NCBI GenBank assembly: GCA_934792625.1
Contig: CAKVON010000006.1
Coordinates: 58,727 to 122,726, forward strand
DNA length: 64,000 bases
Reading direction: 5' to 3'
Origin: an uncultured Atopobiaceae bacterium
GTDB lineage: Bacteria > Actinomycetota > Coriobacteriia > Coriobacteriales > Atopobiaceae
Made by a program: the position numbers and the translations under genes. The notes beneath the pieces are model-generated. The model worked only from the letters and a program-made list of their open reading frames with translations, ran no database searches and was not told where the DNA came from. Positions 5,870-60,576 of the stretch are shown one piece after another. Positions within the stretch are counted from its first letter, which is position 1. Every line of letters starts with the position of its first letter.

Positions 5870-6078
5870 GTGCCCTCCCCAAAGTCGACCCCTGCGACCC
5901 GCGCGTCCTTCTCGGCAGGCGCATCTGTTCCACGCCGCGCGACGGGCGTGGTTGTTTCGCCTTGTTTGCCCAGACCGACAGATTGTGCGAGGTTCGGACG
6001 CACGTGGCTCCCCCACAATATAATGCAGGGTACGCAAATTGGACGGGCGCCGATGCGCCGCCGAGAAGGGACAGACCC

Positions 6079-7443
6079 ATGGCAATCACTTTCGAAGAGG
6101 TCGCCGAGACCCTCAACATGGTTTCCCAGCAGCACCTCGACATCCGCACGATCACCATGGGCATCAACCTGGCAGGTTGCGCCGACGAGGACATGGGCCG
6201 CATGTGCACCAAGGTCTACGACCGCATCACCGGCCTGGCCGCCGACCTCGTGCCCACCGCCGAGGCGCTCGAGCGCGAGTACGGCATCCCCATCGTCAAC
6301 AAGCGCGTCTCGGTTACCCCGATCGCCCAGATCGCGGCCGCCTGCCCCGACGCCGACCTCGTGCCGCTCGCGCACGCGCTCGACCGCGCGGCCGAGACGC
6401 TTGGCATCGACTACCTGGGCGGATACTCCGCCCTCGTGCACAAGGGCATCGGCGACGCCGACCGCAGGCTCATCAACTGCATCCCGCAGGCCCTGGCCGA
6501 GACCAGCCGCGTGTGCTCCTCGGTCAACGTTGCCAGCCTGCACGCCGGCATCAACATGGACGCCGTCCTCATGGCTGCCCAGACGATCCTGGACTGCGCT
6601 CGCCTGACCGCCGACCGCGACTCCGTCGGCGCCTCCAAGTTCGTCTGCTTTGCCAACATGGTCGAGGACTCCCCCTTCATGGCAGGCGCGGTCCACGGCA
6701 CCGGCGAGGCCGACGCCGTCATCAACGTGGGCGTCTCCGGCCCCGGCGTCATGGCCGCCGCCCTGGAGGAGCTGCCCGAGACCGCCGATATGATGCAGGT
6801 CGCCGAGCGCATCAAGCAGACCGCCTTCAAGATCACCCGCGCCGGCGAGCTCATGAGCCGCGAGGCCGCCAAGCGCCTTGGCGTCGAGAAGGGCATCGTC
6901 GACCTGTCGCTCGCCCCCACCCCTGCCGTCGGCGACTCCGTCGCGCGCATCCTGGAGATCATCGGCGTCGGCCAGTGCGGCGGCCCCGGCACCACCTGCG
7001 CCCTCGCCATGCTCAACGACGCCGTCAAGAAGGGCGGCGTCATGGCCAGTTCCAGCGTCGGCGGCCTGTCGGGCGCCTTCATCCCCGTGTCCGAGGACGC
7101 CGGCATGATCGACGCCGCCGAGGCGGGCGCGCTGTCGCTCGAGAAGCTCGAGGCCATGACCTGCGTGTGCTCCGTCGGCCTGGACATGATCGCCGTGCCG
7201 GGCGACACCCCGGTCGAGGCGATCGCCGGCATCATCGCCGACGAGATGGCCATCGGCGTCATCAACAACAAGACCACGGCCGTGCGCCTGATCCCGGCCA
7301 TCGGCAAGTCCGAGGGCGAGTCCGTCGAGTTCGGCGGCCTGTTCGGACGTGCCCCGGTCATGCACGTGAACCCCAACGCTGGCCGGGTCCTGGCGCACCG
7401 CGGCGGCCGCTTCCCGGCCCCGCTGAACTCCCTCAAGAACTAG
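6079..7443 (+). CDS. DUF711 / UPF0210 (PFL-like) family protein
   Basis: 454 residues, matching the family. UPF0210 proteins adopt a glycyl-radical-enzyme-like barrel fold but have no established reaction. Recognisable stretches are the start [18 protein letters not shown], the glycine-rich GVSGPGVM near residue 220, [10 protein letters not shown] near 280, and the C-terminal [18 protein letters not shown]. The ATG at 6079 follows GAGAAGGGA, a ribosome-binding site that is part of a copy of the dispersed motif (CGCCGAGAAGGGAC). In other bacteria the partner is a small ACT-domain protein; none is adjacent here. It is a single-gene unit, closed by a strong terminator. Confidence 0.85.
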
Positions 7444-7510
7444 GGACGACGCTCAAGGCACGAGATCGCGCAAGATCGCACGCGCCCCGCACGTCACTCA
7501 GATCCGCCTA

Positions 7511-7556: not shown

Positions 7557-7588
7557 TAGTTGGCCATGGCTTTTTGTTGGCAGGTGCC

Positions 7589-8518
7589 CTAGAACTCGCC
7601 CAGGAAGCGCACCTCGGGCTCCAGGCGGACGCCAAACTGGCGCTCGACCTCGTCCTGCACGTGCGCGATGACGGCACGCACGTCGGCCGCGGTGGCGTCG
7701 CCCACGTTGACGACGAAGCCGGCGTGCTTGGTCGAGACCTCGGCGCCGCCGCAGCGATATCCCTGCAGGCCCGCGTCGGAGATCAGCTTGCCGGCGAAGT
7801 GGCCCTCGGGACGCTTGAAGGTCGAGCCGGCGCTGGGAAGCTCCAGCGGCTGCTTCTCCTCGCGGCGCTCGGTGAGGTCGTCCATCGTGGCACGGATCTC
7901 GGCCTCGTCGCCGGGCTCCAGCGCGAAGGTGGCCGACAGCACGAACAGGCCGTCATCGGCAATGCGGCTGTGACGGTAGCCCAGGTCGAGCTCGTCGACG
8001 CCCATCTCGCGAACCTCGCCGGCGGCGTCGACCACGCGGACCGACTCGAGCACGTCGGCGATCTGGCCGCCGTAGGCACCGGCGTTCATGAAGACGGCGC
8101 CGCCGACGGTGCCGGGGATCCCACAGGCGAACTCAAGGCCTGTCAGACCCAGGGCGCAGGCCATCTCGGCCGCGTCGGACAGGGTGACGCCCGACTGGCA
8201 CACGAGCTTCTCGTCCTCCACCACCAAGTCGTCCAGGGCGTCGGCCATGCAGATGATGACGCCACGGTAGCCGAGGTCGCTCACCAGAAGGTCGCTGCCA
8301 CGGCCGAGCACGAAGAAGGGCACGCCCTCCTCGCGGCAGACGGCGATGGCACGCTCGGCGGACTCGATCGAGTCGGGCGCCACGAAGACGTCGGCGGGGC
8401 CGCCGATCTCGAAGGTGGTGTGCTCGGAAAGGGGCTCGCTGAGGCTGACGCCGTCCTCCCCCACAACGTCTAGCAGGCGCTGGGCGACGGTCGGTCTGTC
8501 GGGAACCTTGTCGGACAT
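7589..8518 (-). CDS. murB: UDP-N-acetylenolpyruvoylglucosamine reductase
   Basis: 309 residues, the usual length of type II MurB. It is a cytoplasmic FAD enzyme reducing UDP-GlcNAc-enolpyruvate to UDP-MurNAc with NADPH in peptidoglycan synthesis. The FAD-binding part shows HTTFEIGGPADVFV near residue 33, VLGRGSDLLV near 70 and CGIPGTVGGAVFMNAGAYGG near 135. Catalytic features are YRHSRI, the serine in SAGSTFKRP and the terminal glutamate in LEPEVRFLG. AAGGAG precedes the ATG by 11 bases. It stands alone, facing the DUF711 gene. Confidence 0.95.
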   Translation of the reverse strand: MSDKVPDRPTVAQRLLDVVGEDGVSLSEPLSEHTTFEIGGPADVFVAPDSIESAERAIAVCREEGVPFFVLGRGSDLLVSDLGYRGVIICMADALDDLVVEDEKLVCQSGVTLSDAAEMACALGLTGLEFACGIPGTVGGAVFMNAGAYGGQIADVLESVRVVDAAGEVREMGVDELDLGYRHSRIADDGLFVLSATFALEPGDEAEIRATMDDLTERREEKQPLELPSAGSTFKRPEGHFAGKLISDAGLQGYRCGGAEVSTKHAGFVVNVGDATAADVRAVIAHVQDEVERQFGVRLEPEVRFLGEF

Positions 8519-8860: not shown

Positions 8861-8870
8861 GGAGGCCACC

Positions 8871-9470: not shown

Positions 9471-11411
9471 ATGTCGGACACCCCCAACAACACGCTTCCT
9501 GCCGAGAAGGACGTCGAGCCGACGCCCTTCTCGGCAGTCGTGTCCGCCGCGGCGGCGGACGCCGCAGGCGCAACGGGCGCCCCTGGCGCGGCGGGTGCCG
9601 CGTGCGCGACGGTCGCGCGACTGGAGCGCGTGACGTTGGCATACGAGCGCACGGGCGTCGCCCTCGACGACGTCTCGCTCGAGCTTGCCGCAGGCGAGCG
9701 GGTGTGCGTGCTGGGCGCCAACGGCTCCGGGAAGACGACGCTGGCCCTCGTGCTGTGCGGCCTTCTGGCCCCGGACGCCGGCTCGGTCAAGCTGCTGGGG
9801 CACGCGTGCTGCGTCGACGGCGCGCCGGATATGGACGCCTATCGACGCGCGCGCCGCGAGCTCGGCCTGGTGTTCCAGGATCCCCAGGACCAGATCGTGA
9901 CCTCGGTCGTCGACGAGGACGTGGCCTTCGGCCCCGAGAACCTTGGGCTGGACGCGGAGGAAATCGGCAGTCGCGTGGCCCGTGAGCTGGGGCGCGTTGC
10001 CATGGGCGACTTCGCTCACGCCGACCCGTCGCGCCTGTCCGGCGGCCAGCGGCAGCGTGTCGCCATCGCCGGGGCGCTTGCGATGGACCCGCGCCTTCTG
10101 GTGCTCGACGAGCCCGGGGCGCTTTTGGACGTGCGCGGACGGCGCTCCATCATGCGCGTGATGGGGAGGCTTGCCGCGGCCGGAACCACCGTCGTGCACG
10201 TGACCCACTTCATGCAGGAGGCGCTCTCCGCCGACCGCGTGATCATCATGGACGCCGGGCACGTCGCCTTCGACGGGCGTCCCGACGAGGCGTTCTCTCA
10301 CGTGGAGGCCATGCGCGGCCTCGGGCTGGAGGAGCCCTTCTGCGGCAGCCTCGCCGCGAGCCTTCGCGCCCGCGGCGTCGACGTGCCATGGACCTGCCGC
10401 GCCGACGAGCTCGTCGCCTCGCTGGCGGCCCTCCCCCACGCGACCGCGGACGCGACCGCCACGGGCGTCACCTCCACCACGGACGCTGCCCCCACCCCTA
10501 CCGAGAAGGACACCGAGGTCGCGACCCCCGCGATCGTCTCCTGCGACAACGTCGGCCTGTGGTACGGGCGCCGCAACGGCGGCGCCGCGCTCGAGGGCGT
10601 CTCGCTCGAGCTTGCGCCCGGCACGTTCTGCTCGGTCGTGGGACAGACGGGCTCGGGAAAGTCCTCCCTGCTCAGGTTGCTCGCCGCCCTAGACGCGCCC
10701 GACGAGGGCACCGTCCGCATGTGCGGCGTTTCCACCAGCAAGAGGCGCGACCGCAGGCGCCTGCACGGGCGCGTGGGCCTGGTCATGCAGCGTCCCGAAC
10801 GCCAGCTGTTTGCCGAGACCGTGCTCGACGACGTCGCATACGGGCCCTCCAACCAGGGGCTGTCCCGCAACGAGGCGCAGGCAAGGGCCCGCGAGGCACT
10901 CGCGACCGTTGGTCTGGTCGGACGCGAGGACGCCTCGCCCTTCTCGCTGTCGGGCGGCCAGCGCCGCCTGTGTGCCATCGCCGGGATCCTGGCCATGCGC
11001 CCGGAGGTCCTGCTCCTGGACGAGCCCATGGCAGGGCTCGACCCGCGGGGTCGCGACAGGCTGCGCGAGATTCTCGCCACCGTGCACGCGACGGGAACCA
11101 CCGTCGTCCAGGTGACGCACTCGATGGACGAGGCCGCGCGCTCCGACGTCGTGGCCGTGCTCGACCGTGGGCGCCTGGCTGCCTTCGACTCCCCCGCGGC
11201 CGTGTTCACCCACGACAACGAGGCCAGGCTGCGCGAGGCGGGCCTGGGCCTTCCCCACCCCCTCGAGTTCGCGCACGCGCTGGGACGCAAGGGGCTCGAG
11301 CTCGACTGCGAGCCGCTTTGCGCGACGCAGCTTGCCGACGCCATCGCACGGGCCACAAGCCCGACGCACTTCTCGGCAGGCAACGCCGCGGGCGACGGGG
11401 AGGTGCGCTGA
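9471..11411 (+). CDS. ecfA: Fused double ATPase of ECF transporter (EcfA-EcfA')
   Basis: 646 residues from the ATG at 9471; a TTG at 9459 would add four. Two complete ABC ATPase domains are joined. Domain 1 has Walker A GANGSGKTT (about residue 80), Q-loop VFQDPQDQ, signature LSGGQRQR and Walker B LLVLDEP; domain 2 has GQTGSGKSS (about 390), MQRPERQLF, SLSGGQRRL and LLLDEP. Most ECF systems encode these as two genes. The 45-residue N-terminus and the inter-domain linker are low-complexity Ala/Thr/Pro/Asp and hold copies of the dispersed motif, including an inverted pair at 9500-9536 and PTEKD in the linker. The C-terminus holds another copy (HFSAGN). The stop overlaps the ecfT start. Confidence 0.9.
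   Translation: MSDTPNNTLPAEKDVEPTPFSAVVSAAAADAAGATGAPGAAGAACATVARLERVTLAYERTGVALDDVSLELAAGERVCVLGANGSGKTTLALVLCGLLAPDAGSVKLLGHACCVDGAPDMDAYRRARRELGLVFQDPQDQIVTSVVDEDVAFGPENLGLDAEEIGSRVARELGRVAMGDFAHADPSRLSGGQRQRVAIAGALAMDPRLLVLDEPGALLDVRGRRSIMRVMGRLAAAGTTVVHVTHFMQEALSADRVIIMDAGHVAFDGRPDEAFSHVEAMRGLGLEEPFCGSLAASLRARGVDVPWTCRADELVASLAALPHATADATATGVTSTTDAAPTPTEKDTEVATPAIVSCDNVGLWYGRRNGGAALEGVSLELAPGTFCSVVGQTGSGKSSLLRLLAALDAPDEGTVRMCGVSTSKRRDRRRLHGRVGLVMQRPERQLFAETVLDDVAYGPSNQGLSRNEAQARAREALATVGLVGREDASPFSLSGGQRRLCAIAGILAMRPEVLLLDEPMAGLDPRGRDRLREILATVHATGTTVVQVTHSMDEAARSDVVAVLDRGRLAAFDSPAAVFTHDNEARLREAGLGLPHPLEFAHALGRKGLELDCEPLCATQLADAIARATSPTHFSAGNAAGDGEVR
9500..9536. repeat. Inverted pair of the dispersed motif inside a coding linker
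   Basis: TGCCGAGAAGGAC (9500-9512) and its counterpart GCCCTTCTCGGCA (9524-9536) face each other across 11 bases in the N-terminal tail of the ECF ATPase, where they read PAEKD and PFSA. The 10-base core arms could pair as a hairpin. Confidence 0.75.
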
Positions 11412-12205
11412 TGGCCTTTAGGGTGAGCATGGGGCAGTACGTGGCGGGCACGTCGTGCGTGCACCGCCTGGACCCACGTGCCAAGATCGTGGGCGCCATC
11501 ATCGTGAGCTGCGCGGGGTTCCTCGTCTCCAACGCGCCGCAGCTGGCGCTGGCCATGGGCTTCGTGCTCGTGGCGATAGCGCTGTCGCGCGTGGGCGTCG
11601 GCCGCGTGCTGGCGTCGATGCGGCCCATCCTGGCGATGCTGGTGTTTTTGGGCCTGGCAAACCTGCTGATTGTCAGACAAGGCGGCGTCGTGTGGCAGGC
11701 GGGACCCATCTGCGTGACCGAGGTCGGCCTGAGCTCGGCGATTCTTTTCCCGCTGAGAATGGCGGTCGGCGTCGCCGCGTTCGCGCTGCTGTTGCTCACG
11801 ACGACGCCGTCGCAGCTGACCGACGCCTTCGACTCCTTCATGGCCCCGCTGTCGCGCATGGGGCTGCCAGGCCACGAGCTCGCCATGGTCTTCTCGCTCA
11901 TGCTGCGCTTCGTGCCCACGCTTGCCGACGAGGCCTCCGCCGCGATCGACGCGCAGGCAATCCGCGGCGCGGGCATTGGCGAGGGCGGCATCGTGCGGCG
12001 CATGCGCTCGGTCGTTCCCGTGGTGACTTCGCTCATGGCGAGCTCGCTGCGACATGCCGACAGCCTTTCGCGCGCGCTCGACGCCCGTTGCTACGAGGGT
12101 GGCGCCGCGCGTTCGCACTGGCACCCGCTTTCGTTTGGCGCGCGCGACGCGGCCGCCGTGGCGCTTTGCGCGCTGCTGGTCGTGGGGCTTCTCGCCTTGG
12201 GGTAG
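11411..12205 (+). CDS. ecfT: ECF transporter transmembrane component EcfT
   Basis: 264 residues with a hydrophobic core of 4-5 segments. The N-terminal HRLDPRAKIVGAI is the conserved EcfT start; near residue 190-215 the coupling-helix Ala-Arg-Gly type motifs appear as AIDAQAIRGAG and HADSLSRALDARCYEG, which contact the two ATPases. Its ATG overlaps the upstream stop codon by one base, implying coupled translation. With RibU and the fused ATPase it completes a riboflavin ECF transporter; it could also serve S components encoded elsewhere. Confidence 0.9.
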   Translation: MAFRVSMGQYVAGTSCVHRLDPRAKIVGAIIVSCAGFLVSNAPQLALAMGFVLVAIALSRVGVGRVLASMRPILAMLVFLGLANLLIVRQGGVVWQAGPICVTEVGLSSAILFPLRMAVGVAAFALLLLTTTPSQLTDAFDSFMAPLSRMGLPGHELAMVFSLMLRFVPTLADEASAAIDAQAIRGAGIGEGGIVRRMRSVVPVVTSLMASSLRHADSLSRALDARCYEGGAARSHWHPLSFGARDAAAVALCALLVVGLLALG

Positions 12206-12693: not shown

Positions 12694-13029
12694 CTATATG
12701 AGCGAAAGCAGCAGGTAGAACGCGAGTCCAAGCACGCAGCACCACAACATCGAGCGCGTGACGCGCGCCACGACCGCCACAAGCGCGGCCGCGATGACGG
12801 GCACGGCGCAGGCCCAGGGGCCGGACGCCAGACGGGCGGGGTCAAACAGGTCGTTGGCCACCAGCGCGGCGAACGCCGCGGGAGGAATCAGGCCCAGAGC
12901 CTCGACGACGCGCGGCGGCAGGGCGCGCCCACGCAGGGCGAGCGCGGGGACCATGCGGCAGGCGAGAAGTGCCGCCGAGCAGGGAATCCACAACATGAGG
13001 AAGTCGTTGGCGCTCATCGGGGCGGTCAC
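12694..13029 (-). CDS. azlD: Branched-chain amino acid permease small subunit, AzlD type
   Basis: 111 residues from a GTG at 13029 (GTGA overlap with the azlC stop), or 107 from an ATG at 13017. About three or four hydrophobic segments and a polar N-terminus match AzlD-family proteins, which pair with AzlC to export branched-chain amino acids and analogues. The segment PRVVEALGLIPPAAFAALVA is typical. The four-base overlap indicates translational coupling with azlC, its partner. Confidence 0.85.
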   Translation of the reverse strand: MTAPMSANDFLMLWIPCSAALLACRMVPALALRGRALPPRVVEALGLIPPAAFAALVANDLFDPARLASGPWACAVPVIAAALVAVVARVTRSMLWCCVLGLAFYLLLSLI

Positions 13030-50081: not shown

Positions 50082-51746
50082 CTACGCCTGCCTGTACGTG
50101 GAGAGGAAGTCGGCCAGGTCCTCCATGCACTCCTTGAGGACCTCCATGCGCGGCAGGTAGACGATGCGGAAGTGGTCGGGCTCCGCCCAGTTGAAGCCAC
50201 CGCCGCGCGTGATCAGGATCTTCTTCTGGTGCAGCAGGTCGAGCGCGAACTGCTCGTCGTCGGTGATGTTGAACTTCTTCACGTCGAGCTTGGGGAAGAT
50301 GTAGAACGCCGCCTTGGGCTTGACCGCCGTGACGCCATCGATCTGGTTGAGCGACTCGTAGACGTAGTTGCGCTGCTCGTAGACGCGGCCACCGGGGCGG
50401 ATGTACTCGTTGACCGACTGGTAGCCGCCCAACGCGGTCTGGACGATGGACTGCGCCGGCACGTTGGAGCACAGGCGCATGTTGGACAGCATGTTGACTC
50501 CCAGGATGAAGTCCCTCATCGAGGCGATGTTGCCCGACAACACCATCCAGCCCACTCGGTAGCCACAGATCATGTGCGACTTGGACAGGCCCGAGAAGGT
50601 GACGCAGGGAAGGTCGGGCGCGAGCGACGCGATCGAGACGTGCTCGAAGCCGTCCATGATCAGGCGATCGTAGATCTCGTCGGAGAAGATCATCAGCTGG
50701 TGCCTGCGCGCGATCTCGACGATGCCCTCGAGGATCTCGCGCGAGTAGACGGCGCCCGTGGGGTTGTTCGGGTTGATGATGACGATGGCCTTGGTGCGCG
50801 AGGTGACCTTGCTCTCCATGTCCTGCAGGTCGGGGTTCCACTCGTTGGCCTCGTCGCAGACGTAGTGGACGGGGTTGCCGCCGGCCAGGGTGACGCACGC
50901 GGTCCACAACGGGTAGTCCGGGCTGGGGATCAGCACCTCGTCCCCATCGTCGAGAAGGGCGTGCATGCAAAGCTGGATGAGCTCGGACACGCCGTTGCCG
51001 GTGTAGATGTGCCTCATGTCGACGTTGGGGATGTTGCGCAGCTGGGAGTACTGCATGATCGCCTTGCGCGCGGCGAACAGGCCACGCGAGTCGGAGTAGC
51101 CCTCGCAGTCGGCCAGCTGCTGGCGCATGTCAAAAACGACCTCGTCCGGGGCACGGAAGCCGAACGGCGCGGGGTTGCCGATGTTGAGCTTGAGGATGCG
51201 GGCACCACCCTCCTCCATACGGGCGGCCTCGTCGACCACCGGGCCACGCACGTCGTACAGGACGTTGTCGAGCTTGTCGGACTTCTTGAACTGTCGCATG
51301 GGTGTCTCCCCCTGGATGTCGTTACTGACTGTGGTTACGGGTGCGGATGCGCTCGCAGGTGACGCGGTGGTCGATACGACCGAGGTGGCAGAAGGCCCGG
51401 GCGCGGCGTTTTCGACCGCGGCGGTCGGGCTCGGGGTGGCCGGGGCCATGCCCGGCCCGCTAGCTCGTGCGGGAAGCACCGGGTTAGCTGCCGGAACGCG
51501 GGCGACGCGCGGCGCGGGATCGTCGGCTGGGACTCCCGCGAGCCAGGCGGGGTCAACCCGCAACAGGTCGGCAAGGAGCGACATGGCGTCGCGACGGGGC
51601 GTGACCTTGCCGCTGACGTACTGGCTCACCTGGGACTTACCGAGCTTGGCGCCCTTCTCGGCAGCCATTCGGACGAGGTCGGACTGCCTGATGCCCGCGG
51701 CATCCATCGTGGCCGCGAGCCTGTCTTTGAACGAGTTGCCTGGCAT
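50082..51746 (-). CDS. XRE regulator fused to AlaA-type aminotransferase
   Basis: 554 residues in one open frame. Residues 1-68 form an XRE helix-turn-helix (IRQSDLVRMAAEKGAKLGKS, then QVSQYVSGKVTPRRD). Residues 70-149 are an Ala/Pro/Ser/Thr-rich linker. From 150 on, the protein is a full PLP aminotransferase: NPNNPTGAVYSREIL, DEIYDRLI, the lysine in FSGLSKSHMICGYRVGW and ITRGGGFNWAEPDHFRIVYL. GGGGGAG stands 6 bases before the codon for Met150 (51299), so the enzyme could also be made alone. GGAAGG precedes the first ATG. The upstream region has three candidate operators. Confidence 0.9.
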   Translation of the reverse strand: MPGNSFKDRLAATMDAAGIRQSDLVRMAAEKGAKLGKSQVSQYVSGKVTPRRDAMSLLADLLRVDPAWLAGVPADDPAPRVARVPAANPVLPARASGPGMAPATPSPTAAVENAAPGPSATSVVSTTASPASASAPVTTVSNDIQGETPMRQFKKSDKLDNVLYDVRGPVVDEAARMEEGGARILKLNIGNPAPFGFRAPDEVVFDMRQQLADCEGYSDSRGLFAARKAIMQYSQLRNIPNVDMRHIYTGNGVSELIQLCMHALLDDGDEVLIPSPDYPLWTACVTLAGGNPVHYVCDEANEWNPDLQDMESKVTSRTKAIVIINPNNPTGAVYSREILEGIVEIARRHQLMIFSDEIYDRLIMDGFEHVSIASLAPDLPCVTFSGLSKSHMICGYRVGWMVLSGNIASMRDFILGVNMLSNMRLCSNVPAQSIVQTALGGYQSVNEYIRPGGRVYEQRNYVYESLNQIDGVTAVKPKAAFYIFPKLDVKKFNITDDEQFALDLLHQKKILITRGGGFNWAEPDHFRIVYLPRMEVLKECMEDLADFLSTYRQA

Positions 51747-51792: not shown

Positions 51793-51881
51793 AATTGAAC
51801 TAGTTCAATTTCGGTCTTCTCGGCAGGGCCGTTAGTTCAATTTTGTTGAACTATAGCACGTTGGAATTGAACTGATTGAAC
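51793..51881 (-). promoter_or_regulatory. Triple operator array and -10 box of the XRE-aminotransferase gene
   Basis: Site 1, AATTGAACTAGTTCAATT (51793-51810), is a perfect palindrome. Site 2 (51833-51853) has arms TAGTTCAA and TTGAACTA around TTTTG. Site 3 (51863-51881) repeats TTGAACT-GATTGAACT directly. All share the half-site TTGAACT. On the minus strand a -10 box TATAGT (51850-51855) overlaps site 2. A motif copy (51814-51825) lies between sites 1 and 2. Autoregulation by the XRE domain is likely. Confidence 0.8.
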
Positions 51882-52846: not shown

Positions 52847-53824
52847 TCAGGCATCACGCCAGTCGAGGCGCGGCTCGGGGCAGACCAGCTGCCGCGGGTC
52901 GGCGCCCTCGGCGTCGGCGAGGCTCACCCAACGGACGGCGGGGTCGTCGTAGGTGCTGTAGTAGTAGCGACCCGTCCGGGCCGAGAAGCAGCTGGTGTAG
53001 AGGGTCTTCTCGAAGGAGCCGTCGGCCATCGCCGCGGCACCCTCGACCATGGCCACGCCCTCGAGCGTGCGGAACATGCGCACGACGTTGTCGACCTCGG
53101 AGTCCTTGACCGGGTAGTGCGCGTTGAGGTAGGCAACCTTGACGAAGCGCGACGGCGAGTAGCAGTCGCCCGGGATGCCGCGCATGCCGGCGCCCACGCC
53201 ATAGGGTGCGAGCTTGGCGCGGCCCCACTCGCTCGCCTGCGGGAATGCGTTGTCCGCCGTCACGTAGCTGCGCAGGTTCTCCAGGTGCCACTCGAGCGAG
53301 GGCTGGTTGGTCAGCACGTCCACGGGGTCGTCCAGCACGTGCATGCCGTCGGGGCGGCACTCCACCACGATGCTGCGGGCCGCGTCGCCAATAATCCAGT
53401 GCAGGTAGCTCACGCCCAGGCCCTCGCCCGCGGGCTGGCCCACGACCACCGTGTCGCGCAGCGCGGCCTCGGCCTCGTCCACTGTCGAGAAGTGCGCGCA
53501 GACCCACAGCGGAAACTCATAGGCGCACACGTTCGACCTGCCCTCGACGGGCGCGTCGGCGTACTCGGCAAAGCCCGGGAAGTTGAGGCCGGCGACGGCC
53601 AGTCCCGCGTCGTTTCCGCAGTCGAAGAACATGGGGTAGCCGTCCATGGCGACGCACATGCCGATGGTGGCGTGGGCGGCCGGGGCGTCGTCCACGTAGC
53701 GGTAGGCCACGTCGTGGCCCTTGGGAACCACACGGACCTTCTCGCCATAGCCGTGGTTCCAGTCGAGGTTGCGCCCGAGGAACATATTCCCGTCGGAACC
53801 GTTGAACCTAACAGCCGTGCACAT
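52847..53824 (-). CDS. Choloylglycine hydrolase/penicillin acylase family protein
   Basis: 325 residues. Removal of Met1 exposes the nucleophile Cys2 (MCTAVRF), and family residues Arg18 and Asp21 (GRNLDW), Asn81 (AGLNFPGFAEY), Asn173 (LTNQPSLEWHLENL) and Arg in SPSRFVKVAYLN are in place. Asn rather than Tyr at position 81 favours a bile-salt-hydrolase-like site. The protein would cleave N-acyl amides such as conjugated bile salts or quorum-signal amides. GGAGG precedes the ATG. Subclass and substrate would need a phylogeny. Confidence 0.88.
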   Translation of the reverse strand: MCTAVRFNGSDGNMFLGRNLDWNHGYGEKVRVVPKGHDVAYRYVDDAPAAHATIGMCVAMDGYPMFFDCGNDAGLAVAGLNFPGFAEYADAPVEGRSNVCAYEFPLWVCAHFSTVDEAEAALRDTVVVGQPAGEGLGVSYLHWIIGDAARSIVVECRPDGMHVLDDPVDVLTNQPSLEWHLENLRSYVTADNAFPQASEWGRAKLAPYGVGAGMRGIPGDCYSPSRFVKVAYLNAHYPVKDSEVDNVVRMFRTLEGVAMVEGAAAMADGSFEKTLYTSCFSARTGRYYYSTYDDPAVRWVSLADAEGADPRQLVCPEPRLDWRDA

Positions 53825-55026: not shown

Positions 55027-55442
55027 ATCAGCTTGCCGTTGCAGTGGTCGACCATGTGCTGGACCACCTGGGCCATCCAGCCCAGGAAGTCCGCCTGGCG
55101 GTTGACCAGCTTGCCGTCGACCAGCTCCTGGTACTTGACCTTGACCTTCGCGAAGCGCTTGACCCTCTGCTCCTCCTCGCGGGTGAGGCAGCCCTCGACC
55201 ACCTGGGCGGGCGCCAGGCCGAGCAGGATGTGCGGGTTGCACATGACGCGGGCACGGTCCTTCTCGTCCACGTAGGCGAACATGGCCTTGGTGACGCCAA
55301 TCTGGTTGGCGGCGAGGCACGCGGCGTCGTCGAGGGAGGCGAGGGTGTCCAGCAGGTCCTGGGCCAGCTCGGCGTCGTCGGCCGTGGCGGGCTTGCAGCG
55401 CTGGGAGAGAATGGCGTCGTCGGTGACGAGTTCCTTGATCAT
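55023..55442 (-). CDS. Peptide-deformylase-like protein lacking the catalytic Glu
   Basis: 139 residues starting at 55442 after GGAAGGAACC. The fold is PDF-like: LAANQIGVTKAMF (residues 50-62), VEGCLTREE with the metal-binding Cys, and near the end QHMVDHCNGKLI. The usual QHExDH is QHMVDH: both metal-binding histidines remain but the catalytic glutamate is methionine. The protein is shorter than ordinary PDFs (about 165-190). It could be an inactive or moonlighting paralogue. No fmt gene is adjacent. Confidence 0.78.
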   Translation of the reverse strand: MIKELVTDDAILSQRCKPATADDAELAQDLLDTLASLDDAACLAANQIGVTKAMFAYVDEKDRARVMCNPHILLGLAPAQVVEGCLTREEEQRVKRFAKVKVKYQELVDGKLVNRQADFLGWMAQVVQHMVDHCNGKLI

Positions 55443-55681: not shown

Positions 55682-57004
55682 ATGAACCCCATCCGCCGAG
55701 CCTGGTGCCGCACGTTCCAGACCGCGTTCCGCATCGCCCTGCCGCTTCTGCCCTACCGCGAGCCGAAGATCCTGCACTCGGTTGAGGAGGTCCCCGGCGT
55801 GCTTGCGAGCCAGGGCCTGACCTCGGCACTTCTCGTCACGGACACGGGCATCGCCAGGCTGGGCCTCACCCGTGCCCTGGAGGAGGCGCTCGCCGGCGCC
55901 GGCATCTCGTGCGCCGTCTACGACGGGACCGTCGCCAACCCCACCGTCGCCAACGTGGAGGCCGCGCTCGGCGTCTACCACGACCACGGCTGCCAGGCCA
56001 TAATCGGCTTCGGCGGCGGCTCGGCCATGGACTGCGCCAAGGCCGTCGGCGCGCGCGTCGCCCAGCCGAGAAAGAGCGTCAACTCGATGGGCGGCCTTCT
56101 GCGCGTGCACCGCAAGCTGCCCTGCCTGATCGCGGTCCCCACCACCGCCGGCACCGGGAGCGAGGTCACGCTCGCCGCGGTCATCACTGACGAGAGGACC
56201 CACCACAAGTACCCGATCAACGACTTCTTCCTGATCCCCACCTATGCCATGCACGACTGGCGCCTGACCGAGGGCCTGCCCGCGAGCGTCACCGCACAGA
56301 CCGGGATGGACGCGCTGACCCACGCCATCGAGGCGTACGTCGGCCGCAGCACCACCCGCCTGACCCGCGAGAAGGCCCTGTCGGCCTGCCGCCTGATCCA
56401 CGACAACCTGGCCGACGCCTACGACGACCCCCACAACGCGCGCGCCCGCCACAACATGCTCAGGGCGGCCTACGACGCGGGCATCGCCTTCAGCCAGTCC
56501 TACGTCGGCTACGTCCACGCCATCGCCCACAGCCTGGGCGGCCTGTACGGAATCCCGCACGGCCTGGCCAACGCCGTCATCCTGCCGCATGTCCTTCGCG
56601 CCTACGGCGAGGCCGCCGAGCCCAGGCTGGCAGACGTCGCCCGCGCCTGCGGCATCAGCCCCGAGGGCGCGTCCGACCACGACGCGGCACGCTCGCTCAT
56701 CGGCTGGATCGACGCGGCGAACGCGCGCATGGGCATCCCCGACCACCTCGAGGGCATCCGCGCGTCCGACGTCACGGCCATGGCGGCGCACGCCGATGCC
56801 GAGGCCAACCCCCTCTACCCGGTCCCCGTCGAGTGGGATCGCGCCCAGCTCGAGGCCATGTACCATGTTGTCGCGGGCGGCACCCTCGCCGACGAGGCCG
56901 GCGCCGCGCCCGCGGCAGCCGCGCCCGCGCACGACGCCAACAACCGGACGCACTTCTCGGCAAAAAACGCCACTGCCGAGAAGGACCAGGAGGTCGCAGC
57001 ATGA
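55682..57004 (+). CDS. Iron-containing alcohol dehydrogenase
   Basis: 440 residues. Rossmann part with GFGGGSAMDCAKAVG and VPTTAGTGSEVT; metal-binding positions appear in GMDALTHAIEAYV and HAIAHSLGG with GIPHGLANAV. It interconverts alcohols and aldehydes with NAD(H). The last 40 residues form an Ala-rich tail with an inverted pair of motif copies (HFSAKN and TAEKD). AAGGAG precedes the ATG. The stop overlaps the aldehyde dehydrogenase start (ATGA). Confidence 0.9.
   Translation: MNPIRRAWCRTFQTAFRIALPLLPYREPKILHSVEEVPGVLASQGLTSALLVTDTGIARLGLTRALEEALAGAGISCAVYDGTVANPTVANVEAALGVYHDHGCQAIIGFGGGSAMDCAKAVGARVAQPRKSVNSMGGLLRVHRKLPCLIAVPTTAGTGSEVTLAAVITDERTHHKYPINDFFLIPTYAMHDWRLTEGLPASVTAQTGMDALTHAIEAYVGRSTTRLTREKALSACRLIHDNLADAYDDPHNARARHNMLRAAYDAGIAFSQSYVGYVHAIAHSLGGLYGIPHGLANAVILPHVLRAYGEAAEPRLADVARACGISPEGASDHDAARSLIGWIDAANARMGIPDHLEGIRASDVTAMAAHADAEANPLYPVPVEWDRAQLEAMYHVVAGGTLADEAGAAPAAAAPAHDANNRTHFSAKNATAEKDQEVAA
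56950..56986. repeat. Inverted pair of the dispersed motif near the end of the alcohol dehydrogenase
   Basis: GCACTTCTCGGCA (56950-56962) is separated by 11 bases from TGCCGAGAAGGAC (56974-56986). The core arms of 11 bases could form a hairpin a few codons before the coupled start of the next gene. Confidence 0.75.
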
Positions 57005-58389
57005 GTCCCGAGCAGATCGCCAGCATCGTCGAGCGCCAGCGCGCCCACTTCCGCACGCATGCCACCGCCGACGTCTCGCGCCGCCGCGACGCGCTGCGCA
57101 GGCTCCACGCGGCCGTGCGCGCCCACGAGGACGACATCGCCCGCGCGCTTCGCGAGGACCTGGGCAAGTCGCACGACGAGGCCTACATGTGCGAGATCGG
57201 GATGTCGCTGTCCGAGATTCGCTTCCAGGAGTCGCACGTCGAGCGTTGGGCGGGCCGCCACAGGCGCCGCACCGACCTGGCAAACGCCATCGCGTCGAGC
57301 CACGTCGAGAGGGTCCCGTACGGCGTGACCCTCGTCATGGCGCCGTGGAACTACCCGTTCCTGCTGACGCTGGAGCCCCTCGCCGGCGCCATCGCCGCGG
57401 GAAACACCGTGGTCGTCAAGCCCAGCGCCTACGCGCCCGCCAGCTCGGCGGTGCTGCACCGGATCTGCGAGGAGGCCTTCGCGCCCGAGCTCGTGAGCGT
57501 GGTCGAGGGCGGCCGCGCCGAGAACACCGCGCTTCTGGACCAGCGCTGGGACAACATCTTCTTCACCGGCAGCGTCGGCGTGGGCAAGCTCGTCATGGGC
57601 CGCGCCGCCGAGAACCTGACGCCGGTCACGCTGGAACTCGGCGGCAAGAGCCCCTGCGTCGTGTGCGCCAACGCCAACCTGCGCGTGGCCGCCCGACGCG
57701 TCGCGTTCGGCAAGTGGCTCAACCTGGGCCAGACCTGCGTCGCGCCCGACTACGTCCTGGTTGACCGCCGCGTGCACGACGAGTTTCTCGCCCTGCTGCG
57801 TGAGGAGGCCACCCGCATGTACGGCGACGACGCGCTGGCCAACCCCGACTACGGCCACATGGTCAACCGCAAGCACTACGACCGCGTCTGCGGCCTGATT
57901 GATGCCGAGAAGGACGGGCGGGTCCTGATGGGCGGACGGCGCGACGACGAGACCCTGCGCATCGAGCCGACCGTGCTGGACGGCGTGACGGCGTCCTCCC
58001 CCGTCATGGGCGAGGAGATCTTCGGGCCCGTCCTGCCCGTCATGGCCTACGACGAGCTCGACGAGGCACTGGCCTTCGTCGAGTCGCGACCCACGCCGCT
58101 CGCGTTCTACCTGTTCACGGCCAGCAAGTCGCTCGCACGCCGCGTCATGCGCGACGTCGCGTTCGGCGGCGGCTGCGTCAACGACTGCATCATGCACCTG
58201 GCCACGAGCCACATGGGCTTCGGCGGCATGGGCAACTCGGGCATGGGCAGCTACCACGGACGCAAGAGCTTCGAGGCGTTCACCCACGAGAAGAGCGTCG
58301 TGTCCAAGGCGACCTTCTTCGACGCCCCGTTCCGCTACCAGCCCTACGCTGGCTGGAAGCGCGCCTTCGTCAGGATGTTCGTCCACTAG
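57001..58389 (+). CDS. Aldehyde dehydrogenase
   Basis: 462 residues. Motifs are APWNYPFLLTLEPLAGAIAAGN, FFTGSVGVGKLVM, the glutamate in LELGGKSPC, the nucleophile in NLGQTCVAPDYV, and EEIFGPVLPV. Length and sequence fit the class-3 or fatty-aldehyde type. Coupled to the iron alcohol dehydrogenase gene, it would take an alcohol to its acid, or the reverse. A motif copy lies in a surface loop (DAEKDGR). The stop overlaps the convergent GTPase gene by CTAG. Confidence 0.92.
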   Translation: MSPEQIASIVERQRAHFRTHATADVSRRRDALRRLHAAVRAHEDDIARALREDLGKSHDEAYMCEIGMSLSEIRFQESHVERWAGRHRRRTDLANAIASSHVERVPYGVTLVMAPWNYPFLLTLEPLAGAIAAGNTVVVKPSAYAPASSAVLHRICEEAFAPELVSVVEGGRAENTALLDQRWDNIFFTGSVGVGKLVMGRAAENLTPVTLELGGKSPCVVCANANLRVAARRVAFGKWLNLGQTCVAPDYVLVDRRVHDEFLALLREEATRMYGDDALANPDYGHMVNRKHYDRVCGLIDAEKDGRVLMGGRRDDETLRIEPTVLDGVTASSPVMGEEIFGPVLPVMAYDELDEALAFVESRPTPLAFYLFTASKSLARRVMRDVAFGGGCVNDCIMHLATSHMGFGGMGNSGMGSYHGRKSFEAFTHEKSVVSKATFFDAPFRYQPYAGWKRAFVRMFVH

Positions 58390-60407
58390 CGCGCGAGCGA
58401 TCCCGCGGCGGCGCCAACCCCCATGACCTCGGCCGCCGAGCGCCAGGGGCGCAGGCGGGAGGCGTCGCACGGCACGTGGGCGTGCGCGGGCACCTCGGCC
58501 CACTTGACCGTGTAACCCGCGCCGTGGCTGCAAAAGACCGAATCGGGCGTGTTGGGCAGGTCGGCCTCCGGGTCGTAGCCCGCCTCCTCGACCACGCGGC
58601 GAGCGTCGTGGCAGGGCTCGTAGCCCGACAGCTCGAGCGACAGCCTACCCAGCCCGCTCGTGTACTCGGCGAGCTCCAGCGCGTAGTCGCCCAGCTCGGA
58701 GGCGGGAACGCTGCCCGTCAGGCGGGCCTCGTCGCCCGTCTGGTCGGGCACGCCGAAGCGGGCCGACATCCGCGTGAGGTCCGACATGGCACGTCCGACC
58801 TTCTGCACGGGAAGCTCCAGCTCGAAGGCGTACCACGGCTCCAGAAGGACGCACTCGCCCCAGGCGCGCGCCACCATCAGCGCCTGGCGCATCGCACGGT
58901 AGGTTGCCTGGCGGAAGTCGCCGCCCTCGGTGTGCTTGGGGTGGGCGCGGCCGGCAAGAAGGGTCACGCGCACGTCGGTCACCGGCGCGCCCGTGAGCAC
59001 GCCCGACAGGTCGCGCTCAGCCGCGTTCGTCAGGATCAGCCGCTGCCAGTTGAGGTCGAGGTCGTCGGTCGAGCACTCCGACCCGAACGTGACGCCACTG
59101 CCGCGAGGCGCGGGCTCCACGCGCAGGCTGACCTCGGCATAGTGGCGCAGCGGCTCAAAGTGCCCGACGCCGACCGTGGCCTGCGAGACGGTCTCCTTGT
59201 AGAGGATGGCGCCCGGCCCAAACGAGATGTCCAGCCCGTGGCGGCGCGCCACGAGGTCGCGCACGACCTCAAGCTGCACCGCGCCCATCAGGCGAAGTCG
59301 GATCTGCTGCAGCCGCTCGTCCCACGAGACGCCCAGCATCGGGTCCTCCTCGGCAAGCTCGCGCAGGGCCACCAGGACCGTGTGCGGGTCGGCCTCGCCG
59401 CAAAGCACGCCATAGGTGAGCACGGGCGCCAGCGCGGGCCAGCCCTGCGCGGGCTCGGCGCCCAAGGCGTCGCCCGGCCGCACGCTCGAAAGCCCCGTCA
59501 CGGCGCAGACGCCCCCCGCTTCCACCCGCCGAACCGACTCGAAGCGCGACCCCGTGTAGACGCGCAGCTCGTTGACCTTCTGCGACCAAGGCTCGCCGCC
59601 CGTCACACCCTCCACCTGCTGCTTGGCGAGAAGGGCACCACCCGTGACCTTGAGCCAGGCGATCCTCTCGCCGCGGTCTCCGCGGCTCACGCGGTAGACG
59701 CGCGCCGCGAACTCGTGCGGCCACGTGCGGTCGGGCGCAAGCTCCGCCAGCATGTCCAGAAGCTCGGCCACGCCCTCGCCCCTGAGCGCCGAGCCAAACA
59801 GGCACGGGTAGACGCGTCGTCGCGCCACCAGGTCGCGCGCCGTGGCCTCCGCGAGCGACCCACGCTCCAAAAACTCCTCGAGCGCGCCCTCGTCGGCCAT
59901 GGCGGCCCGCTCGCCGCGAAGCTCGTCGGCGCCGACGCACCCCTCGTCCAGGCGCGAGCGCATGGTCGCGAGCAGCGCGTCCTTCTCGGCAGGAGAACCC
60001 GCGTCCGGCAGAAGATCGACCTTGTTCACGAAGACGACGGTCGGGATGCCGTGCCGCTCGAGCAGGCGCCACAGGGTGCGCGTGTGGCCCTGGACGCCGT
60101 CGTTGGCGCCCACGACCAATACCGCCATGTCCAGCGCGGCCAGCGTACGCTCGGCCTCGGCCGAGAAGTCCACGTGGCCGGGCGAGTCCACCAGCGTGAT
60201 TGCGACGCCCGCGTGCTCGATCGCCGCCTGGGACGAGAAGATCGTGATGCCACGGTCGCGCTCCATGCGGTCGGTGTCCAGGTGCGAGTCGCCGCGGTCG
60301 ACGCGGCCCGCCGCGCGGATCGCGCCCACGTCGAGCAGCATCGCCTCGGCGAGCGTGGTCTTGCCCGCGTCGACGTGCGCCAATATGCCGATGACCGCCT
60401 GCCTCAT
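58386..60407 (-). CDS. TetM/TetO-like ribosome-protection GTPase (EF-G superfamily)
   Basis: 673 residues from 60407 (GAGGGGG upstream). GTPase motifs: AHVDAGKTTL, RGITIFSSQAA, VDSPGHVDF and VNKVDLL; then EF-G domains II-V, with FELELPVQKVGRAMSDLTRM and GSVPASELGDYALELAEYTSG in domain IV/V. The order fits TetM/TetO-type ribosome protection proteins, which release tetracycline from the ribosome, but this may be a chromosomal paralogue not giving resistance. A motif copy inserts SPAEKDALL at residues 139-145 of the G domain. No mobile element adjoins. Confidence 0.83.
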   Translation of the reverse strand: MRQAVIGILAHVDAGKTTLAEAMLLDVGAIRAAGRVDRGDSHLDTDRMERDRGITIFSSQAAIEHAGVAITLVDSPGHVDFSAEAERTLAALDMAVLVVGANDGVQGHTRTLWRLLERHGIPTVVFVNKVDLLPDAGSPAEKDALLATMRSRLDEGCVGADELRGERAAMADEGALEEFLERGSLAEATARDLVARRRVYPCLFGSALRGEGVAELLDMLAELAPDRTWPHEFAARVYRVSRGDRGERIAWLKVTGGALLAKQQVEGVTGGEPWSQKVNELRVYTGSRFESVRRVEAGGVCAVTGLSSVRPGDALGAEPAQGWPALAPVLTYGVLCGEADPHTVLVALRELAEEDPMLGVSWDERLQQIRLRLMGAVQLEVVRDLVARRHGLDISFGPGAILYKETVSQATVGVGHFEPLRHYAEVSLRVEPAPRGSGVTFGSECSTDDLDLNWQRLILTNAAERDLSGVLTGAPVTDVRVTLLAGRAHPKHTEGGDFRQATYRAMRQALMVARAWGECVLLEPWYAFELELPVQKVGRAMSDLTRMSARFGVPDQTGDEARLTGSVPASELGDYALELAEYTSGLGRLSLELSGYEPCHDARRVVEEAGYDPEADLPNTPDSVFCSHGAGYTVKWAEVPAHAHVPCDASRLRPWRSAAEVMGVGAAAGSLAR

Positions 60408-60576
60408 TCGCCCGTCCCCCTCGACCTCGCGCGTGCTTCTCGGCAGCACGGCCCCGTAGGCCGCGCGCCTGTCGCCCATTATCGTGGAGGTTGTCGCGCC
60501 TGTGGGCAAACGGACAGCGCGGGGCGACTTCGGGGTACCCTAGGCACTGTATCGACGAGACGCAAAAGGAGCCCCA

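What the first reader, a model, noticed from the sequence alone, without database searches (positions are those of the whole stretch)
5905..60445. Dispersed DNA motif TGCCGAGAAGKRC, about 34 copies in 64 kb, equally on both strands
By eye I count about 17 direct and 17 complement copies of the 10-mer, against well under one expected by chance. Copies occur between genes (5905, 20870, 60433), in terminators (27737), across operators (51814) and in coding linkers, where they are translated in different frames: PAEKD, HFSA, ALLGS, GTSRQ. Different frames mean that selection or spread is on DNA. Size, density (about one per 1.9 kb), strand balance and inverted pairs resemble DNA uptake sequences of Neisseria and Pasteurellaceae, which I know of in no actinobacterium. 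A protein-binding site or a mobile mini-repeat are alternatives. Part of the count reflects common Ala-Glu-Lys codons, so enrichment must be tested.
Basis: partly seen in the sequence, partly recalled or inferred. Interest (0 to 1): 0.9.

Follow-up and report, generated by a model that had tools for sequence, protein, structure and literature searches.

The report
Uptake-like DNA tag in gut Actinobacteria
A short DNA word is sprinkled about once per thousand letters through the genomes of a group of gut and mouth Actinobacteria, with a different spelling in different lineages, and it looks like the self-recognition tags that two unrelated bacterial families use to take up their own kind's DNA; uptake itself is untested.

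Summary
The window holds 35 exact TGCCGAGAAG copies (17 +, 18 -; 0.23 expected), part of a wider consensus GNCGAGAAGNNC: 75 copies, 10 outside predicted genes where about 0.1 is expected. It exceeds synonymous-codon shuffles. Thirteen Thermophilibacter/Olsenella-type genomes, chosen for motif-rich loci, carry 1370-2369 copies (reversed pattern 89-150); 43 of 396 Coriobacteriia genomes have at least 1000. In T. provencensis copies are strand-neutral, 7.7-fold enriched antisense to genes, twice as dense in convergent as in divergent spacers; both conjugative coupling-protein loci of that genome lie in near-empty blocks. Lineages have dialects around CGAGAA; one also uses CGATAAG. Lack of polarity disfavours Chi- or FtsK-like signals. 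Most DNA-level tests fit a DNA uptake sequence; inverted pairs were inconclusive. No report in Actinobacteria was found. Six motif-rich genomes have one type II/IV secretion ATPase, in a Tad locus where examined; Tad pili serve transformation in Micrococcus luteus. But Tad, ComEA/ComEC and DprA also occur in motif-poor relatives, no receptor was identified, and uptake is untested.

The parts
351..362 (+). GNCGAGAAGNNC copy, antisense in gene
2166..2178 (-). TGCCGAGAAGTAC, sense in gene
2364..2375 (-). GNCGAGAAGNNC copy
3414..3425 (-). GNCGAGAAGNNC copy
4338..4349 (-). GNCGAGAAGNNC copy
5905..5917 (-). TGCCGAGAAGGAC, between genes
6883..6894 (+). GNCGAGAAGNNC copy
8204..8215 (-). GNCGAGAAGNNC copy
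9500..9512 (+). TGCCGAGAAGGAC, sense (PAEKD); inverted pair with 9524
9524..9536 (-). TGCCGAGAAGGGC, antisense (PFSA)
11366..11378 (-). TGCCGAGAAGTGC, antisense
12185..12196 (-). GNCGAGAAGNNC copy, antisense
12961..12972 (+). GNCGAGAAGNNC copy, antisense
14828..14839 (+). GNCGAGAAGNNC copy, between genes
15685..15697 (-). TGCCGAGAAGGAC, sense
15847..15858 (+). GNCGAGAAGNNC copy, between genes
16881..16893 (-). TGCCGAGAAGATC, sense
17388..17400 (+). TGCCGAGAAGGAC, antisense
17685..17697 (-). TGCCGAGAAGGGC, sense
19630..19641 (-). GNCGAGAAGNNC copy
20389..20400 (+). GNCGAGAAGNNC copy, antisense
20870..20882 (-). TGCCGAGAAGTGC, between genes
21728..21740 (-). TGCCGAGAAGAGC, antisense
21747..21758 (+). 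GNCGAGAAGNNC copy
22541..22553 (+). TGCCGAGAAGAAC, sense
22554..22565 (+). GNCGAGAAGNNC copy
24092..24104 (+). TGCCGAGAAGGAC, sense
26248..26260 (+). TGCCGAGAAGGAC, sense
26345..26356 (-). GNCGAGAAGNNC copy, antisense
26957..26968 (-). GNCGAGAAGNNC copy, antisense
27737..27749 (+). TGCCGAGAAGGGC, between genes, next to a hairpin and T run that look like a terminator (by eye)
29586..29597 (+). GNCGAGAAGNNC copy
29810..29821 (+). GNCGAGAAGNNC copy
30599..30610 (+). GNCGAGAAGNNC copy, antisense
30673..30684 (-). GNCGAGAAGNNC copy
30790..30801 (-). GNCGAGAAGNNC copy
31951..31962 (-). GNCGAGAAGNNC copy, between genes
32795..32806 (-). GNCGAGAAGNNC copy, antisense
35496..35508 (+). TGCCGAGAAGGGC, sense
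36300..36312 (-). TGCCGAGAAGTCC, antisense
37426..37437 (-). GNCGAGAAGNNC copy, antisense
37664..37675 (-). GNCGAGAAGNNC copy, between genes
38434..38446 (+). TGCCGAGAAGGGC, sense
38923..38935 (+). TGCCGAGAAGAAC, sense
39499..39511 (-). TGCCGAGAAGTGC, antisense
41424..41435 (+). GNCGAGAAGNNC copy
42032..42043 (-). GNCGAGAAGNNC copy, antisense
42590..42601 (-). GNCGAGAAGNNC copy, between genes
43327..43339 (+). TGCCGAGAAGGAC, sense
44224..44236 (+). TGCCGAGAAGAGC, sense
45580..45592 (+). TGCCGAGAAGTGC, antisense
46560..46572 (+). TGCCGAGAAGTAC, antisense
48400..48412 (+). TGCCGAGAAGGAC, sense
49653..49665 (-). TGCCGAGAAGGAC, sense
50949..50960 (+). GNCGAGAAGNNC copy, antisense
51651..51663 (-). 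TGCCGAGAAGGGC, between genes
51813..51825 (-). TGCCGAGAAGACC, between genes, between two TAGTTCAATTT repeats
53484..53495 (+). GNCGAGAAGNNC copy, antisense
53735..53746 (-). GNCGAGAAGNNC copy
55257..55268 (-). GNCGAGAAGNNC copy
55826..55837 (-). GNCGAGAAGNNC copy, antisense
56950..56962 (-). TGCCGAGAAGTGC, antisense; inverted pair with 56974
56974..56986 (+). TGCCGAGAAGGAC, sense
57903..57915 (+). TGCCGAGAAGGAC, sense
59625..59636 (+). GNCGAGAAGNNC copy, antisense
59979..59991 (-). TGCCGAGAAGGAC, sense
60160..60171 (+). GNCGAGAAGNNC copy, antisense
60232..60243 (+). GNCGAGAAGNNC copy, antisense
60433..60445 (-). TGCCGAGAAGCAC, in predicted N-terminus (start uncertain) or just upstream
60930..60942 (+). 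TGCCGAGAAGGTC, sense
61378..61389 (+). GNCGAGAAGNNC copy
61546..61557 (+). GNCGAGAAGNNC copy
62125..62136 (-). GNCGAGAAGNNC copy, antisense
62993..63005 (-). TGCCGAGAAGAAC, antisense
63129..63140 (+). GNCGAGAAGNNC copy

Best explanation
The motif is a DNA uptake sequence of the Atopobiaceae (Coriobacteriia). Shown: a non-palindromic 12-13 bp word (core CGAGAA, lineage-specific flanks) is present at about one per kilobase in motif-rich genomes, strand-neutral, in and between genes, far above codon and base expectation, nearly missing from the conjugative islands of one genome, and its spelling shifts in concert across each genome. Inferred: an exposed protein of the competence apparatus, perhaps a subunit of the Tad/Flp pilus or ComEA, binds the word on double-stranded DNA; tagged fragments are preferentially taken up, passed through ComEC and recombined with the help of DprA and RecA; alleles that carry the word are taken up more often, so copies accumulate by biased transfer (molecular drive), and each lineage's spelling follows its own receptor, giving a barrier to foreign DNA.
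For: Window: 35 exact 10-mers vs 0.23; 65 in-gene 12-mers vs 23.1 by synonymous shuffle; 10 outside genes (9 with a second gene set) vs about 0.1. Genomes: 13 of 13 Thermophilibacter/Olsenella-type genomes, picked because their loci looked rich, carry 1370-2369 copies, forward about equal to reverse, reversed pattern 89-150; 43 of 396 Coriobacteriia genomes have at least 1000 (hand count). G003 (T. provencensis, 59 of 60 sampled stretches, 1.18 Mb): 907 sites; 188 outside genes (115 by share of bases; base-composition expectation 1.8); coding 718 vs 233.5, antisense 355 vs 46; 2.2 per kb in convergent, 1.2 in tandem, 1.1 in divergent spacers. No polarity: 462 vs 445; best two-arc split 53 of 907, null mean 111. 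Conjugative islands: the two coupling-protein loci of G003 (PF02534) both lie in blocks with 1 site per 20 kb; island genes hold 1 site in 27.4 kb vs 733 in 1.00 Mb elsewhere; atypical DUS distributions likewise mark ICEs in Neisseriaceae (PMC7371117, abstract). Dialects: logos and whole-genome counts: GNCGAGAAGRAC 570-861 in four Thermophilibacter/Olsenella genomes vs 35 and 48 in G262 and G230; GNCGATAAGNYC 260 in G230 vs 4-14; CGAGAAA form 634 in the 1.0-Mb G262. Sites are shared between orthologues about twice as often as controls, with much turnover. Machinery: ComEC 32 of 32, DprA 32 of 32, ComEA at 29 of 30 ComEC loci; one T2SSE-family ATPase in G001, G003, G013, G054, G140 and G252, in a Tad locus in G003.
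Against: No uptake data. Tad genes, ComEA/ComEC and DprA are also present in motif-poor Coriobacteriia, several of which have a single T2SSE ATPase too, so machinery does not track the motif; no receptor candidate stood out by gene content or net charge. Inverted pairs are a modest excess: 10 of 27 close non-coding pairs are head-to-head, 4 tail-to-tail. A defence/restriction-type block of G003 (L216) still holds 7 sites. Motif-poor genomes also exceed the reversed pattern 3-6 fold, and some genomes scored negative keep a partial signal: GNCGAGAAGRAC 216 in G255, GNCGATAAGNYC 49 in G019, core word outside genes 4.9-fold in G146 and 3.3-fold in G105. Coriobacteriia are thought to lack an outer membrane, where known uptake words act (recalled). 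Island voids and concerted dialects would also fit another chromosomal recognition site.
Confidence: 0.72

Rival explanations
1. A chromosome-organising or nucleoid protein binds the word about once per kilobase and selection keeps the sites.
For: Genome-wide, strand-neutral spread and near-absence from conjugative islands; concerted dialects could follow any DNA-binding protein.
Against: No strand organisation; in G003 density is highest in convergent spacers and lowest in divergent ones, and coding regions carry it antisense; the word is far above expectation in some Atopobiaceae-type genomes but not clearly so in several relatives, odd for a housekeeping protein.
Confidence: 0.12
2. A Chi-like signal that modulates a recombination/repair nuclease.
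For: Short, non-palindromic, over-represented in the chromosome.
Against: Chi-like signals are oriented with replication (recalled for E. coli); here no polarity: 462 vs 445, and the best two-arc split is smaller than 97% of null draws. The origin was not mapped. Loose inner positions and dialects are unlike known Chi words (recalled).
Confidence: 0.06
3. An FtsK-guiding polar sequence (KOPS-type).
For: Over-represented short word.
Against: KOPS-type words are strongly skewed along replichores (recalled); no skew here.
Confidence: 0.01
4. The excess is codon and amino-acid composition (Ala/Val/Gly/Asp-Glu-Lys with GAG AAG codons).
For: 37 of 65 in-gene copies of the window lie in that frame; motif-poor genomes still hold 200-565 copies, which I take to be mostly of this kind (inference).
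Against: Synonymous shuffles and resampling leave about a 3-fold excess overall and 7.7-fold antisense in G003; outside genes 187 observed vs 1.8 expected in G003.
Confidence: 0.02
5. A methylation or other self-marking site of a defence system, or a short mobile repeat.
For: Conjugative islands nearly lack it; methylation is not testable here.
Against: Restriction sites are usually avoided rather than accumulated (recalled); flanks beyond the 12-13 bp carry almost no information, so copies are not parts of a longer element.
Confidence: 0.05

Closest known systems
DNA uptake sequence (DUS) of Neisseriaceae, with dialects (PMC3630211; abstract and other passages seen)
   Same: Short non-palindromic over-represented word, in and between genes, inverted pairs at terminators (strong there, modest here), a core kept in all dialects, lineage-wide dialects; atypical distribution in ICEs (PMC7371117, abstract).
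   Different: Unrelated word (core CTG there, CGAGAA here); Actinobacteria rather than Proteobacteria; Tad-type pilus locus; receptor unknown and uptake not shown here.
Uptake signal sequence (USS) of Pasteurellaceae (PMC2346458 and PMC12616744, passages seen)
   Same: Hundreds to thousands of copies of a short word, two dialects, no general orientation bias in the genome, present in reading frames with one orientation preferred.
   Different: Unrelated word and phylum; the receptor candidate there is a type IV minor pilin (PMC12616744, title and passages).
Flp/Tad-pilus natural transformation of Micrococcus luteus (PMC6370729, 12 of 23 matching passages seen)
   Same: An actinobacterium with comEA and comEC but no comG cluster, whose Flp pili are required for transformation; a like inventory is seen here (comG was not searched by name).
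   Different: No uptake word for M. luteus appears in the passages shown (those holding the phrase 'uptake sequence' were not among them); transformation is shown there, not here.
Chi and KOPS sites
   Same: Short over-represented chromosomal words.
   Different: Those are polar along replication (recalled); this one is not in G003.

Membership tests
DNA uptake sequence (functional class) | Hundreds to thousands of copies of a short word, far above expectation | tested here: met
DNA uptake sequence (functional class) | No strand polarity along the chromosome | tested here: met
   (position-resolved in one genome, G003)
DNA uptake sequence (functional class) | Atypical (low) density in recently acquired mobile DNA | tested here: met
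   both coupling-protein loci of G003 in blocks with 1 site each; one genome only; the four integrase loci lie in unsampled gaps; defence-type block L216 holds 7 sites
DNA uptake sequence (functional class) | Lineage dialects around a kept core | tested here: met
   one dialect (G230) varies the third base of GAGAAG
DNA uptake sequence (functional class) | Inverted pairs at terminators | tested here: inconclusive
   10 head-to-head of 27 close non-coding pairs; 1.81 per kb in 3' flanks vs 0.99 in 5' flanks
DNA uptake sequence (functional class) | Competence machinery in the same genomes | tested here: met
   but also present in motif-poor genomes
DNA uptake sequence (functional class) | Preferential binding/uptake of DNA carrying the word | not testable with these tools
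   bench test needed
Neisseriaceae DUS | CTG core and related sequence | tested here: not met
   consensus GNCGAGAAGNNC has no such core
Neisseriaceae DUS | ComP minor pilin on a type IVa pilus | tested here: inconclusive
   one T2SSE-family ATPase in G001, G003, G013, G054, G140, G252, in a Tad locus in G003; G008, G012 and G036 have a further match over the cut-off that was not examined; ComP itself not searched
Chi-type or KOPS-type site | Polarity relative to replication | tested here: not met
   origin not mapped

The most novel reading that the evidence does not exclude
A third, independently evolved self-DNA uptake system, the first outside the Proteobacteria: in Atopobiaceae a Tad/Flp-pilus or ComEA-linked receptor reads a CGAGAA-core word, and receptor and word have co-evolved into at least five dialects that separate gut and mouth lineages sexually, with losses in some branches.
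Probability: 0.6. Interest if true: 0.92.

Novelty: new variant of a known kind. Interest (0 to 1): 0.83.

Why it matters
Uptake words are described from two proteobacterial families, thought to have arisen independently (PMC12616744, passages), and why they exist (selection for kin DNA or by-product of receptor bias) is an old question. An independent case in a different phylum with another pilus would allow a comparative test. It would also imply natural transformation in gut and oral Coriobacteriia and suggest a simple label (add the word to donor DNA) for genetic work on them. In T. provencensis the word also marks conjugative islands by its near-absence.

Tried and rejected
Codon bias as the sole cause: rejected. 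Replichore-polar signals: disfavoured. Presence/absence of Tad, ComEC, ComEA or DprA as the explanation for motif-rich versus motif-poor genomes: no correlation. Net charge of Tad-locus proteins as a pointer to a receptor: no clear signal. EM motif fitting drifted to codon periodicity or to weak motifs in many of the 29 sets (G003, G012, G001, G252, G036, G187, G105 and others) and was replaced by leave-one-position-out counts. The ComEC tree has a misread row for G054 (very long branch) and open deep forks; only the placing of weak-motif G187 as sister to eight motif-rich rows is used from it. Viral contigs gave no relatives of the query gene. Among the six top k-mers shown per length, G105, G146, G015, G019, G027 and G079 show no such word; in G255 plain CGAGAAG heads the 7-mers mildly (120 vs 68). 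G065 was weak outside genes (3 core words, 1.2 times expectation), and G036, rich genome-wide, had 0 of the 12-mer in its 1.35 kb of non-coding sample. Integrase-marked loci of G003 could not be tested: all five matches fall outside the sampled stretches.

Literature: no paper of the held library has 'uptake sequence' with 'Coriobacteri', 'DNA uptake sequences' with 'Actinomycetota' or 'uptake signal sequence' with 'Tad pil'; (five terms) also gave none. One search (with 'Actinobacteria') gave 5, of which I saw passages of one (PMC6370729). Searches (15 of 1,207 listed; 10 of 29 listed) showed none with an uptake term; one search gave one unrelated paper. Preprints and most subscription papers are not held.

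Full report
What was checked. The 10-mer TGCCGAGAAG occurs 35 times in the window, 17 on + and 18 on -, against 0.23 in dinucleotide shuffles. The 13-mer TGCCGAGAAGKRC occurs 25 times exactly, 54 times with at most one mismatch (0.33 expected). A blind k-mer count puts the 10-mer first among 10-mers (35 vs 1.08), with kin such as CGAGAAGTGC, CGAGAAGGGC and CGAGAAGGAC. Anchoring on GAGAAG gives [T]GNCGAGAAGNNC: three before the anchor G (0.64), one before C (0.81), three after it C (0.85), in 152 window anchors and, with another flank, in 671 anchors of 13 relatives' loci; 14 rumen relatives' loci (311 anchors) show a weak trace (0.44, 0.54, 0.55).

Codons. Outside predicted genes the window holds 10 GNCGAGAAGNNC (9 with a second gene set) against about 0.1 from base composition. 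In genes 65 vs 23.1 +/- 3.3 by synonymous shuffle; for the 10-mer 30 vs 1.0. The (A/V/G/D)EK frame holds 37 of 65, antisense 27, another sense frame 1. Part of the count is protein composition, but the excess is at DNA level.

Where it comes from. No genome is held for the window. A translation-factor-type gene (58386-60479) has its best matches, 54-67%, in Thermophilibacter, Olsenella and other Atopobiaceae/Coriobacteriaceae records. The window thus seems to be from an Atopobiaceae-type lineage without a named genome here. None of 396 Coriobacteriia genomes is as rich in its exact dialect: the highest is 122 copies in 2.3 Mb (G010) against 25 in 64 kb here.

Genome-wide counts. I gave the genomes of 21 of the 80 loci: 13 whose loci looked motif-rich (Thermophilibacter/Olsenella-type), 7 rumen Coriobacteriia and a Bifidobacterium. 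The 13 hold 1370-2369 copies of GNCGAGAAGNNC (reversed pattern 89-150, forward about equal to reverse), the 7 hold 202-565 (reversed 62-156), the Bifidobacterium 199 (31). Of 396 Coriobacteriia genomes, drawn evenly from a larger group, 43 hold at least 1000 (hand count) and G187 has 971. The lower counts I take to be mostly GAG-AAG codons: in G015, G019, G027, G079 and G146 no GNCGAGAAGNNC was found outside genes (0 in 7-14 kb each).

Anatomy in one genome. Sixty stretches of G003 (Thermophilibacter provencensis; L003 lies in it) cover 1.2 of 2.63 Mb. Without the rRNA block (59 stretches) there are 907 sites: 363 sense (192 expected by synonymous resampling), 355 antisense (46 expected), 188 outside genes (115 by share of bases), 1 straddling. 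Convergent spacers hold 49 sites in 22.6 kb, tandem 95 in 80.6 kb, divergent 37 in 34.3 kb (181 of 188 placed), not what promoter-type sites would show. Three-prime flanks hold 1.81 per kb, five-prime flanks 0.99; of 27 close non-coding pairs 10 are head-to-head, 9 and 4 the two same-strand kinds, 4 tail-to-tail; about four of the ten form perfect stems by eye, e.g. GGGCGAGAAGGACgaggggacGTCCTTCTCGCCC.

Polarity. 462 forward and 445 reverse; blocks with positive GC skew 232/206, negative 230/239. The best division of the circle into two arcs gives an imbalance of 53 of 907 (null mean 111); strand bias does not follow gene strand (r = 0.03; r = 0.20 with GC skew; 58 blocks). The origin was not mapped. 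KOPS-like and Chi-like polarity are thus unlikely.

Voids. Four of 60 blocks have at most 2 sites: L165 holds three complete tandem rRNA operons; L176 and L180 look like conjugative islands and L195 like a transposase/surface-protein island (read; one ATPase each in L176 and L180 matches HerA/DUF87 just over the cut-off). These were first noticed because they were empty, so their make-up was tested independently: the coupling-protein family PF02534 has matches at two places in G003, 759.5 kb and 934.5-935.8 kb, inside L176 and L180. Island genes: 1 site in 27.4 kb (2.75 expected from their own codons); L195 genes 0 in 17.9 kb (0.75); other genes 733 in 1.00 Mb (235). Against this, a restriction/defence-type block, L216, holds 7 sites in 20 kb, and the integrase loci fall outside the sample. 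In Neisseriaceae, atypical DUS distributions served to find ICEs (PMC7371117, abstract).

Dialects. Leave-one-out counts: window TGCCGAGAAGKRC (T at the first place 70%); Thermophilibacter/Olsenella-type G[GC]CGAGAAGRAC (T before it 12-32%, 0 of 5 sites in G140); G101 TGGCGAGAA[AG], A 49%; G262 YCGAGAA[AG], A 51%; G230 TGNCGA[GT]AAGAYC, T in place of G 39%; G077 TGGCGAGAAG. G101 is 1,543,805 bp, the length of the Atopobium parvulum type strain (PMC3035223, passages; 45.6% GC sampled, 45.7% published). Whole-genome counts in 20 chosen genomes: GNCGATAAGNYC 260 in G230, 4-14 in G003, G012, G001 and G008, but also 49-79 in G191, G023, G081, G065, G388, G077 and G019; NSCGAGAAANNC 634 in G262 (1.0 Mb), 489 in G101, 491-544 in G023, G081 and G240, 125-180 in those four; GNCGAGAAGRAC 570-861 in those four, 35 and 48 in G262 and G230, but 216 in G255 and 144-166 in G065, G077, G191, G136, G388, G187 and G240. 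Outside genes the core CGAGAAR is 8-29 times expectation in the Thermophilibacter/Olsenella-type sets and the window, 5-7 times in G101, G077, G262, G230 and G187, 7.6 in G134, 6.4 in G388, 4.9 in G146, 3.3 in G105, at most 2.7 in G015, G019, G027, G079, G255, G317, G049 and G065; the reversed word runs 0-7 times (two sites or fewer in most extreme cases, 4.9 with 13 sites in G262). So the lower-GC dialects rest more on the k-mer tests. Concerted spelling at about a thousand scattered sites points to one recognising molecule per lineage (inference).

Site turnover. In orthologous genes of G003 and 14 other sets, 11 sets (without G140, G187 and the window) share 25-60% of sites, against 7-28% identity for control windows; G140 75% vs 71%; G187 24% vs 16%; window 27% vs 14% (3-23 sites per side). 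The control does not match codon content, so this is indicative only.

Machinery. In 32 chosen genomes T2SSE-family ATPases occur in all; G001, G003, G013, G054, G140 and G252 (motif-rich) have exactly one match, as do motif-poor G105, G014, G015, G019, G027, G056, G079 and G202; G008, G012 and G036 have a further one over the cut-off. In G003 it lies in a Tad-type locus: T2SSE, T2SSF and TadE over their cut-offs, Flp1-like and RcpC below them. ComEC is in 32 of 32, DprA in 32 of 32, a ComEA relative beside ComEC in 29 of 30 loci. Tad genes are largely the same in 11 motif-positive and 9 motif-negative loci, some cut short, weak in G027 and G079. In Micrococcus luteus Flp/Tad pili are needed for transformation (PMC6370729, passages). 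A route for uptake exists; the gene that would make it selective is not identified.

Phylogeny. In a 30-row ComEC tree eight motif-rich rows group (100/96), G187 (weak motif) is their sister (100/100), and other motif-bearing rows (G077/G065, G262, G230) lie among motif-poor ones, with open deep forks. This fits an old word with losses; independent gains are not excluded.

Novelty. Searches found no paper joining uptake sequences with Tad pili, Coriobacteriia or Actinomycetota; the library lacks most subscription papers and all preprints.

Noticed in passing
window 8712-8865 (+): FMN riboswitch aptamer (RF00050, 92.9 bits) directly before a predicted membrane-protein gene at 8892-9452.
   Followed up: no
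window 58386-60479 (-): Translation-factor GTPase that looks like the TetM/EF-G type (label from its N-terminal sequence, recalled; no family scan); relatives at 47-67% in Atopobiaceae, Clostridia and a Bifidobacterium. Used only as a search query.
   Followed up: no
L165 (G003:C3:264001-284000): Three complete tandem 16S-23S-5S rRNA operons within 20 kb, an unusual array and a motif-free block.
   Followed up: partly
L176 and L180 (G003): Two related conjugative-type islands, each with a coupling-protein match (PF02534) and a HerA-type ATPase, visible as motif near-voids.
   Followed up: partly
L093 (G134:C1:1-20000): GC-rich words (AGCGGGGAT, GGGGATGAT, GGGGAGCAC) 48-49 times in 20 kb; may be a CRISPR array, not checked.
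   Followed up: no
Thermophilibacter/Olsenella-type loci (13 pooled): Further over-represented words such as TCCCCAATT and GGGACTGTC (29-42 copies where 0.2-0.7 is expected), apparently a separate dispersed repeat.
   Followed up: no
G003 sample: Word GTGCAAAAG/CTTTTGCAC, 70 copies vs 3.0 expected, unexplained.
   Followed up: no
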